From contig NBOG01000008.1 of the NCBI GenBank assembly GCA_002104535.1, positions 1 through 64,000 of the forward strand: a stretch of 64,000 nucleotides of DNA, read 5' to 3'. Positions 1-1,794 of the stretch are shown one piece after another (the stretch's first letter is position 1; the number at the start of each line of letters is the position of its first letter). The stretch comes from Cognaticolwellia sediminilitoris (lineage in GTDB: Bacteria > Pseudomonadota > Gammaproteobacteria > Enterobacterales > Alteromonadaceae). Both the position numbers and the translations under genes were made by a program. The notes beneath the pieces were generated by a model that had not been told where the DNA came from, did no database searches, and was given only the letters and a program-made list of their open reading frames with translations.

Positions 1-88
1 ATAAGAGAAGTGAATACAAAGGATTCTTAAATTAATGAATAAGGATCAGTGTATTTAACTTGACGTGGGGAGTCATACCAACGCCCTG

Positions 89-160
89 TTAATGGGCAAA
101 ATATAGTTGGCTAGAATAAGCGACGCAGGAGCAAAAGCCAACTGTATTTTGTCCTTGTTA
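89..160 (+). ncRNA. Candidate bridge-RNA stem-loop upstream of IS110 transposase
   Basis: Positions 94-112 pair with 136-154 over 19 base pairs, including two G-U wobbles and no true mismatch, around a 23-nt loop (113-135). The pairing resumes after a 2-nt bulge (TTAA at 89-92 with TTAA at about 157-160). A long stem with a large internal loop ahead of the transposase matches the layout of IS110 bridge RNAs, whose loops base-pair with target and donor DNA. Transcription and guide function are inferred. Confidence 0.45.
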
Positions 161-180
161 AACAGCTTGATACTAATTGA

Positions 181-221
181 GCCTTCTCCCCGAAGTCTAG
201 CACTGAGCTAAACTTCAAGGC
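181..221 (+). ncRNA. Second hairpin in the 5' region of the IS110 element
   Basis: The arm at 192-201 pairs with 207-216 (10 bp, one mismatch) around a 5-nt loop, and GCCTT (181-185) pairs with AAGGC (217-221) across a 6-nt C-rich bulge. It ends about 25 nt before the transposase ATG, just before the ribosome-binding site (AAAGGAG at 233-239). It could be part of a bridge RNA or a structure limiting transposase translation. Confidence 0.4.
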
Positions 222-246
222 GACCAAACCAAAAGGAGAAAGCTCA

Positions 247-1290
247 ATGAAATTCTATACTACTTTACATAAATATTATTGCGGAATCGATCTACATGCA
301 CGACTTTTATATGTTTGCATACTTGATGAACATGGTAATAAAGTCGTTCATCAGAAAATAAAAGCCGATCCTCATCAGTTACACAAGCTACTCAAACCCT
401 ATATTGGACAGTTGGTGGTTGGGGTTGAGTGCATGCATTGCTGGTATTGGGTCAGTGACTTTTGTCGTGAGATAAATGTTGAGTTTATTTTAGGCCATGC
501 GCTTTATATGAAAGCTATTCATGGCGGAAAAGCTAAAAACGATAAGATAGACTCCTATAAAATTGCTAGCCTAATGCGCGGAGGGAATTTCCCACTTGCC
601 TACAATTACCCAACAGAAATACGCGCAACCAGAGATTTACTCAGAAGACGCACCTACGTTATGCGACATGGAAGTGAGTTAAAAGCCCACGTCGTTAACA
701 CCGACAGCCAATATAACTTACCCGCTCAATCACTTAATTTAAAAAATGTCAGTGCCCGTGACGGACTGCGAGATTATTATGATGATCCTGTTGTACAACG
801 GATGATAGCACTCGACATGAACATCCTAGATTGCTACATCCGAGAGCTAAAGCATGTTGAGTCATTTATCGAAGGAAAAGCCAAAGAACATTATGGTGCA
901 CTACTCAATATCGTTCGAACATTCCCGGGTATTGGTCAAATTCTAGCATTAACCATTATATATGAAATTGGCGACATCAACCGTTTTCCCAGCGTTCAAC
1001 AGTTTGCCTCTTATTCACGATTAGTGAAATGCAAAGCAGAGTCTGCAGGGAAAACCTATGGTACTAGCAGTAATAAAATCGGTAATGGTTATCTGAAATG
1101 GGCTTTTAGTGAAGCCGCGGTGCTTTATCTTCGCGGTAATGACAACGCTAAACGCTATTTAGCTAAATTACAAAAACGCATGAGTAAAGGTAAAGCGTTA
1201 TCAGCACTAGCACATAAAATTGGTCGCTGTGTTTACTTCATGCTTCGAGATAGACAGGTGTTTGATGAAAATAAATTTTTAAAAGGTTAA
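247..1290 (+). CDS. IS110-family transposase (DEDD + serine type)
   Basis: The 347-residue length is normal for IS110 recombinases. The N-terminal RuvC-like DEDD domain shows GIDLH (D15), GVECMH (E61) and KNDKIDS (D99/D102). A helix-hairpin-helix-like FPGIGQILAL begins near residue 226, followed by the C-terminal Tnp_20-type domain with the expected serine in GTSSNKIGNGYLK (about S274/S275). All catalytic positions are present, so the enzyme may be active. The ATG is well placed behind an AAAGGAGAAAGC ribosome-binding site. IS110 recombinases use a structured guide RNA from their own non-coding end to choose donor and target sequences; candidate RNA structures flank this gene. Confidence 0.93.
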   Translation: MKFYTTLHKYYCGIDLHARLLYVCILDEHGNKVVHQKIKADPHQLHKLLKPYIGQLVVGVECMHCWYWVSDFCREINVEFILGHALYMKAIHGGKAKNDKIDSYKIASLMRGGNFPLAYNYPTEIRATRDLLRRRTYVMRHGSELKAHVVNTDSQYNLPAQSLNLKNVSARDGLRDYYDDPVVQRMIALDMNILDCYIRELKHVESFIEGKAKEHYGALLNIVRTFPGIGQILALTIIYEIGDINRFPSVQQFASYSRLVKCKAESAGKTYGTSSNKIGNGYLKWAFSEAAVLYLRGNDNAKRYLAKLQKRMSKGKALSALAHKIGRCVYFMLRDRQVFDENKFLKG

Positions 1291-1292
1291 GT

Positions 1293-1431
1293 CGCACAAT
1301 GGCGAGAGCTGAACACCTAACTGGATGAGTAAGAGCATCTGATTAATCATCGCGTCCGTTAACTGAAAGTTGATGATTATTATGCCGAGTAGTCCAAGCC
1401 ACTTCGCTTGATTAGACTCGCCATTGGTGCG
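1293..1431 (+). ncRNA. Candidate structured RNA downstream of IS110 transposase
   Basis: Immediately after the stop codon, 1293-1306 pairs with 1417-1431 (14 bp with one bulged base), closing a domain of about 110 nt. Inside are at least two hairpins: TAATCATC with GATGATTA around a 20-nt loop, and CAAGC with GCTTG around CACTT, the latter flanked by AGTC/GACT. A closed multi-branch domain in the 3' non-coding end is what IS1111-group elements carry as their guide RNA. Function is inferred. Confidence 0.45.
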
Positions 1432-1701
1432 CATTATTGCAATGAGCAAGCGCGTTTACACCTTAACTGAGTCTTAAACTAACTGAACTGTGCCCAAAGG
1501 CACTGAGTCATCATGCTTGAATAGTACCAGCGTAAGGTTAACCGATAAATGTCTAGTGCCCCTACTTAACATATGGATAGACAGAGTAGGCAGTGATGAG
1601 ATCACACTAAGAGAGCCTCTATATGTGTTTGCCGTAAACCGTTGTTTAATGGCTAATTGACATAGCGAAGTAGATGAACTTGTGAATTGAATGAACAATT
1701 A
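1432..1701. other. Non-coding stretch between IS110 region and cassette-like genes
   Basis: I see no convincing gene here. A 74-codon minus-strand frame exists but its residue composition does not look like a protein. A short hairpin (GTGCC/GGCAC, 1490-1503) is present. The stretch may be the distal IS end, a decayed cassette, or both. Confidence 0.4.
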
Positions 1702-1720
1702 GCTGCCTAACGGCAGCTAA
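1699..1720. repeat. Perfect 9-bp hairpin with TAAC loop
   Basis: TTAGCTGCC (1699-1707) and GGCAGCTAA (1712-1720) form a perfect 9-bp stem around TAAC. It contains GCCTAAC, which on the minus strand reads GTTAGGC and fits the integron R-box consensus GTTRRRY, so it overlaps one end of the attC-like site at 1702-1794. Confidence 0.6.
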
Positions 1721-1794
1721 ATAAAACCCTATTGCCTATTGACGGGAATAAGGCTCATATGTGACGGGAATAAGGCTCATATGTGTTAGGTTGC
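1702..1794 (-). other. attC-like recombination site 2 (after orphan gene 2)
   Basis: On the minus strand the site begins with GCAACCTAAC, overlapping the stop codon of the 158-residue gene, and ends with GTTAGGCAGC. ACCTAAC fits the RYYYAAC box and GTTAGGC fits the GTTRRRY box of integron attC sites. The 93-bp length is close to the 96 bp of the neighbouring site. The interior is less palindromic and carries a 22-bp tandem duplication, so this is weaker than site 1. Confidence 0.38.
1741..1784. repeat. 22-bp direct tandem repeat, two copies
   Basis: Two identical 22-bp units beginning GACGGGAATAAGG abut at 1741-1762 and 1763-1784, just before the GTTAGGTTGC box at the end of the 158-residue gene. 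The unit contains GAATAAGG, which also occurs at 37-44 near the left IS side. This is direct sequence identity; its origin is not known. Confidence 0.9.

What the first reader, a model, noticed from the sequence alone, without database searches (positions are those of the whole stretch)
61..1431. IS110 element with strong RNA structures on both sides of the transposase
A 19-bp stem with a 23-nt loop and a second hairpin precede the gene, and a 14-bp closed multi-hairpin domain follows it. IS110-family recombinases use bridge RNAs to choose target and donor; an element with structure at both ends does not clearly fit the IS110 or IS1111 pattern.
Basis: partly seen in the sequence, partly recalled or inferred. 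Interest (0 to 1): 0.58.

Follow-up and report, generated by a model that had tools for sequence, protein, structure and literature searches.

The report
Mobile DNA parked in integron sites

Summary
The three structures are real, but they are three different things. (1) The 19-bp stem (94-154) lies outside the mobile unit. It is an integron attC site, found without the transposase in this genome and in many others, and it is the element's target. (2) The second hairpin (about 176-248) is inside the element. It pairs the left subterminal repeat with the transposase's ribosome-binding site (predicted in 47 of 48 relatives). (3) The 14-bp-closed domain (1291-1432) opens a non-coding region of about 490 nt that runs to the true right end at 1785. 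Its fold has 40 of 57 pairs with two-sided compensatory changes.

The element is 170-1785, inserted without target duplication between TTG and TTA of the attC R'' box, directly behind a cassette gene's stop codon. The 3' strand of the first RNA domain matches the left target at -6 to -4 across relatives (17 tree-independent pairs for, 1 against). This supports a bridge/seekRNA choosing attC.

Anatomy and attC targeting are IS1111-like. The transposase, however, falls outside the IS1111 clade, next to ISGsu4-type enzymes. So: not a new mechanism, but an attC-targeting IS110-family group apart from the IS1111-attC group. Donor recognition remains partly unassigned, and no RNA was observed.

The parts
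80..169 (-). Most of an integron attC site (canonical orientation on - strand: R'' split by the IS, L'' CAAGGAC, 19-bp stem at 94-154, R' GGGCGTT); target of the element, outside the mobile unit
   Evidence: Same sequence without transposase in own genome and in many of 98 relatives, often in tandem on one strand; uninterrupted copies read ..CTTGTTA..; IntI-type integrase gene next to one copy
170..1785 (+). The mobile element, 1616 bp (63 loci with both ends: 1577-1666)
   Evidence: Ends from 74 left junctions and 63 loci with both ends
178..192 (+). Left subterminal inverted repeat TGAGCCTTCTCCCCG
   Evidence: I8, I9
176..248 (+). Leader hairpin pairing the left repeat with the Shine-Dalgarno GGAG and start region of the transposase gene
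   Evidence: predicted in 47 of 48 leaders
247..1290 (+). IS110-family DEDD transposase/recombinase, 347 aa, catalytic D, E, D, D and the C-terminal serine present
1291..1432 (+). RNA domain D1 (closing stem 1291-1306/1417-1432): proposed target-binding loop
   Evidence: helix 1: 11 of 15 pairs with two-sided changes, 98.2% of cells paired
1317..1321 (+). CTAAC, proposed guide to the right target half (complement of G|TTAG)
   Evidence: invariant in A1; no variation to test
1405..1410 (+). CGCTTG, proposed guide to the left target half (window target 164-169 AGCTTG)
1440..1689 (+). Second RNA module closed by long-range stem 1440-1457/1672-1689, holding loop D2 (1460-1538), a paralogue of D1 by motif
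   Evidence: helices 2-9
1620..1627 (+). TATATGTG, candidate donor guide, like the right-end sequence CATATGTG
   Evidence: variable base agrees with the right end in 45 of 45; also changed together in L146
1765..1779 (+). Right subterminal inverted repeat CGGGAATAAGGCTCA (a second copy at 1743-1757)
1741..1784 (+). Tandem 22-bp duplication of the right terminus
   Evidence: D3; absent in the near-identical copies L122 and L123
1786..2388 (-). Cassette gene whose stop codon (TAA, 1786-1788 on - strand) abuts the element

Best explanation
An IS110-family insertion sequence that targets integron attC sites. Shown by comparison: element ends, insertion without target duplication between TTG and TTA of the attC R'' box (the same strand position, G|TTRRRY, at which the partner box is cut by integron integrase; that comparison is from general knowledge), subterminal repeats, a conserved downstream RNA fold, and co-variation of one RNA strand with the left target half. 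Inferred: the downstream region is transcribed into a bridge/seekRNA. Loop D1 pairs its 3' strand with the bottom strand of the left target half (nnnTTG) and its 5' CTAAC with the top strand of the right half (GTTAG). Another segment (TATATGTG) helps read the element's own right end. The DEDD/serine recombinase then exchanges strands around a shared TG between a circular form and attC. Joining the ends would create a promoter (-35 TTGACn, 18 bp, -10 GATACT), and the leader hairpin would keep the transposase silent on read-through transcripts.
For: Family. Ends: 73 of 74 left junctions have TTG and 58 of 61 distinct right flanks begin TTA. Target: attC-like pattern at 57 of 74 left junctions against 11.9% of background TTGs (relaxed; strict 48 of 74 against 10.3%); empty attC sites. 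Stop-codon abutment: 23 of 59 right junctions end an open frame of 60 or more codons, against 4 of 118 in the other two frames and 2.6% of background. RNA fold: 94.6% of cells paired, shuffles 79.5 +/- 0.4, slid versions 30-44%. Left guide: -4, -5, -6 match in 55, 36, 36 of 66 against 36.4, 18.9, 24.9 expected; a collinear diagonal with the highest single value in an open scan; 17 to 1 in edge-disjoint tree pairs, p 7e-5. Junction promoter geometry: spacing 18 in 56 of 63 loci.
Against: No RNA, circle or transposition was observed. The right-half guide never varies and cannot be tested. Loop D2 also shows a weaker target signal (10 to 2), so which loop reads what is not settled. No convincing guide to the left end of the element was found. 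The donor-guide agreement rests on one variable base and few events. D1 control positions -7 to -11 also lean the same way (16 to 7). In this copy the right end is duplicated, which moves TTGACG away from the junction.
Confidence: 0.82

Rival explanations
1. It is simply a member of the known IS1111-attC group, and the transposase tree misplaces a fast branch.
For: Same target kind, subterminal repeats and downstream non-coding region as described for IS1111 elements (PMC11187229, sections 6 and 9); the AU test does not reject holding IS1111 rows and this clade together (p 0.166).
Against: Named IS4321, IS5075 and IS5708 with five kin form a 100/100 clade without it; it joins ISGsu4-type rows at 100/99. 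Only 21-24% identity to the IS110-family transposases of enterobacterial plasmids. The IS1111 motif GL-P----S(T)G reads RLVKCKAESAG.
Confidence: 0.2
2. The downstream RNA fold serves something other than targeting (for instance messenger stability or protein binding), and attC choice is made by the protein or by the folded single-stranded attC.
For: attC sites are hairpins (for this one); some invariant RNA motifs could bind protein.
Against: Base-by-base co-variation of D1 with the left target half, strongest at three positions, with tree control; published reprogramming in relatives (PMC11187229 sections and passages read; PMC11208160 passages read).
Confidence: 0.12
3. One reading: the upstream 19-bp stem is part of the element and of its bridge RNA.
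For: It abuts the transposase leader.
Against: The 95-98% identical copies L122, L123, L124 and L042 have other left flanks, and the stem occurs alone elsewhere.
Confidence: 0.01

Closest known systems
IS1111-attC group (ISKpn4, ISPst6, ISPa21, ISPa25)
   Same: IS110 superfamily; inserts at one end of attC; subterminal repeats; long non-coding region downstream of the gene from which a seekRNA is made (PMC11187229; ISPa21 in PMC11616780)
   Different: Transposase outside the IS1111 clade represented here by IS4321, IS5075, IS5708 and kin; non-coding region about 490 nt with two paralogous loops and a long-range stem (no known member of the group was aligned here)
IS621 / IS110 bridge-RNA elements
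   Same: DEDD plus serine recombinase, proposed two-half target reading by an RNA loop, short shared core, no target duplication
   Different: In IS110-type elements the RNA lies upstream in the left end (PMC11208160 passages); here it is downstream, with 15-bp subterminal repeats
ISGsu4-type IS110 transposases
   Same: Nearest transposase neighbours outside the clade (100/99), about 32-33% identity
   Different: Their targets and RNAs were not studied here
Group IIC introns that insert at attC
   Same: Use of attC as a landing site (mentioned in PMC9229058 passages)
   Different: Unrelated machinery; the element here is an IS110-family insertion sequence

Membership tests
IS110 superfamily (RNA-guided DEDD transposases) | N-terminal DEDD domain and C-terminal Transposase_20 domain with conserved serine | tested here: met
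IS1111 family | Subterminal inverted repeats of sufficient length | tested here: met
   15 bp, 87% complementary, 178-192 with 1765-1779
IS1111 family | Longer non-coding region downstream of the gene | tested here: met
   77 nt before and 495 nt after the gene inside the element
IS1111 family | Transposase related along its length to IS1111 types | tested here: not met
   Outside the 100/100 IS1111 clade; the AU test on joining both groups is inconclusive (p 0.166)
IS1111 family | GL-P----S(T)G motif | tested here: not met
   RLVKCKAESAG or near variants in the clade
[quoted passage not shown]
   CTAAC precedes nnnTTG in D1, but only the second strand is supported by co-variation
IS1111-attC group | Insertion at a fixed point in attC | tested here: met
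IS1111-attC group | Transposase inside the group of ISKpn4/ISPst6/ISPa21 | not tested
   Those sequences were not obtained; Tetu and Holmes 2008 is not held
Bridge/seekRNA systems | Non-coding RNA made and bound by the transposase | not testable with these tools
   only fold and guide co-variation
Integron attC site (for window 80-169) | R'', L'', L', R' order, cassette context, integrase in genome | tested here: met
   the integrase gene is split over two frames in this assembly

The most novel reading that the evidence does not exclude
A second, separately evolved clade of IS110-family elements took to integron attC sites, using a long three-module guide RNA in which the target-reading loop is duplicated (D1 and D2 both carry CTAACTGG-type and nnnTTGA motifs, and both track the target), with a separate segment for the donor end. 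That would be a bridge RNA of another plan than the two-loop RNA described for IS621.
Probability: 0.3. Interest if true: 0.6.

Novelty: new variant of a known kind. Interest (0 to 1): 0.42.

Why it matters
It turns a puzzling 'structure at both ends' into a readable case: a target hairpin, a leader hairpin and a guide RNA. It offers natural sequence evidence for which bases of a downstream guide RNA read the target (three variable positions that follow the target among relatives). It suggests that attC targeting arose in an IS110-family branch apart from IS1111, so integron cassettes in marine bacteria may be parked or locked by more than one RNA-guided lineage. If the duplicated-loop reading holds, the RNA plan differs from those described in the papers read.

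Tried and rejected
Rfam on the whole window: only a tRNA at the gathering level. RNAalifold on the leader alignment failed (3 pairs), because MAFFT does not align the variable hairpin; replaced by single folds with mononucleotide shuffles. Right-target co-variation: none beyond invariant letters; in several rows the script's D2 motif was misplaced. GAAGTA (about 1667-1672) as guide to the left end: rejected by eye, since it does not follow the left-end variants. First tree held one wrong reading frame (L162_p); rebuilt. Viral contigs: no relative. Phages: only distant hits. Proteobacterial survey: 7 of 398 genomes matched at 1e-40, two of those only at about 32-33% identity. Mini-elements: six right-end remnants in the genome were looked at for a paired left end; none convincing was found in the stretches held.

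Novelty searches in the held library. None of the listings, nor the passages read, describes an attC-targeting IS110-family group outside IS1111. ISfinder, Post and Hall 2009 and Tetu and Holmes 2008 could not be read. PMC11187229: sections 6, 9, 13, outline and passages read; PMC11208160, PMC9229058, PMC11616780, PMC11089894: passages only.

Rows dropped: alignment A1 used 45 of 63 loci (near-duplicates and copies with inserts left out); A2 48 of 58 distinct leaders; the guide test 66 distinct of 68 usable of 74 loci (6 lacked a motif); 11 of 74 loci lacked a recognised right end.

Full report
Observation. The three structures exist. The 19-bp stem with 23-nt loop is at 94-112/136-154. Window 1-300 folds at -79.4 kcal/mol against -59.9 +/- 4.9 for shuffles. 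The second hairpin lies at about 176-248. The 14-bp-closed domain is 1291-1432; in a single-sequence test its region is not better than shuffles (z -0.52), so its reality rests on comparison, below. The gene is 247-1290, 347 aa, an IS110-family transposase with D, E, D, D and the C-terminal serine in place.

The upstream stem is outside the element. Window 80-172 recurs without the transposase in this genome. In 98 relatives, 57 match some part of the query; many of the matches are this stretch alone, several times in tandem on one strand. Copies of the element 95-98% identical to this one (L122, L123, L124, L042) have different left flanks, identity stopping at the same point. The stretch has the order of an integron attC site on the - strand. 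One copy stands behind a cassette gene next to an integron-integrase gene in this genome (that gene is split over two frames in the assembly). So the most striking structure is the target.

Ends of the element. Uninterrupted attC sites mostly read ..CTTGTTA... Occupied sites read ..CTTG|ATACTAATTGAGCC ... CATATGTG|TTA... The element is therefore 170-1785, with no target duplication. Of 74 left junctions 73 have TTG; of 61 distinct right flanks 58 begin TTA. Element length is 1577-1666 bp in the 63 loci with both ends. The subterminal repeats are 178-192 and 1765-1779. The attC-like pattern is at 57 of 74 left junctions against 11.9% of background TTGs (a stricter form 48 of 74 against 10.3%); some of the misses look attC-like by eye and others (for example L123) do not. 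In 23 of 59 distinct right junctions the TTA is the stop codon of an open frame of 60 or more codons on the other strand, against 4 of 118 in the other frames and 2.6% of background. In the window the same holds for the gene ending at 1786. The element thus parks right behind cassette genes and parts them from most of their attC.

RNA downstream. The region from the stop codon to the right end is about 490 nt and conserved in 45 aligned relatives. Its consensus fold has 57 pairs, 40 with two-sided compensatory changes. Counted with controls, 94.6% of cells pair (shuffles 79.5 +/- 0.4; partners slid by 1-3 columns 30-44%), and the covariation score is 0.486 against 0.200. The fold is: domain D1; a long-range stem 1440-1457/1672-1689 that encloses loop D2 and smaller hairpins; and a last hairpin at 1699-1720.

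Guide test. D1 and D2 share the motifs CTAACTG and TTGA. CTAAC is complementary to the right target half (GTTAG) and nnnTTG equals the left half. In 66 distinct loci the D1 triplet before TTG equals the target at -4, -5, -6 in 55, 36 and 36, against 36.4, 18.9 and 24.9 by shuffling, with no signal at -7 to -10 (-11 had p 0.02). Scanning every variable column of 45 loci against the left flank gives the same three positions as a collinear diagonal, containing the highest single value of that scan. With edge-disjoint pairs on a tree, the own target fits better in 17 and the swapped one in 1 (p 7e-5); control positions -7 to -11 gave 16 to 7, and D2 gave 10 to 2. Where D1 and D2 differ, the target follows D1 in 8, 13, 19 and D2 in 3, 3, 4. 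I take D1 as the target loop. The right half never varies and could not be tested.

Donor end. TATATGTG at 1620-1627 resembles the right end CATATGTG; the variable base agrees in 45 of 45. A Nitrospirota relative shows AATAAGTG inside and TATAAGTG at its end. Changes are few. No guide to the left end is assigned. Joining the ends gives TTGACn - 18 bp - GATACT in most loci: spacing 18 in 56 of 63, GATACT in 55. That circles form is inferred from the family.

Leader hairpin. In 47 of 48 leaders the GGAG before the start codon is predicted to pair with upstream sequence. In the folds printed, the partner is the stretch that includes the left repeat. The inner hairpin is well below mononucleotide shuffles (median z -4.5) although its sequence varies widely. 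A check on translation of read-through transcripts is the natural reading; it is inferred.

What it is. By anatomy and target it works like IS1111 elements that hit attC, for which a downstream non-coding region yields a target-choosing seekRNA (PMC11187229, sections 6 and 9). By transposase it is not in the IS1111 clade: IS4321, IS5075, IS5708 and five kin group at 100/100 without it, and it joins ISGsu4-type enzymes at 100/99. An AU test does not reject putting both groups together (p 0.166). The known attC-targeting IS1111 transposases themselves could not be obtained. I therefore file it as an attC-targeting IS110-family group with IS1111-like anatomy, not as an IS1111 member.

Spread. The 80 loci kept from public genomes are mostly marine or halophilic Gammaproteobacteria (Colwellia, Pseudoalteromonas, Shewanella, Alteromonas, Halomonas, Grimontia, Marinobacter and others); two Nitrospirota plasmid copies are 46-53% identical. 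Among 398 genomes of the phylum 7 matched at 1e-40, two of those only at about 32-33% identity.

Noticed in passing
window 1741-1784; L093 right end: The right terminal 22 bp are duplicated in tandem in this copy; an Aliidiomarina copy shows the same kind of duplication. Perhaps a recombinase slip at a TG.
   Followed up: partly
own genome, loci L004-L009 (contigs C20, C3, C10, C29, C26): Six right-end remnants of this element stand without a transposase, five of them followed by TTA; two appear cut by another element sharing AGTTATTATGGGTG-like ends.
   Followed up: partly
own genome C6:82135-83083 (L142, L143): Integron integrase gene matched in two overlapping frames, so it looks frameshifted in this assembly.
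   Followed up: partly
L155 (Vibrio campbellii plasmid), 68-1084 and 1501-2544: An IS1111-clade element and a member of this group seem to flank one attC-like site, one on each side.
   Followed up: no
window 1-79: The stretch next to the attC also recurs behind attC sites in this genome (C5, C6) and in congeners; possibly a shared cassette or the far end of the array.
   Followed up: no
L151 (Raoultella plasmid): Two tandem copies of one IS1111-type element; some plasmids hold up to ten matches.
   Followed up: no
L123 (unnamed relative): A near-identical copy inserted at a site that does not look like attC but keeps CTTG|TTA: an off-target case.
   Followed up: no
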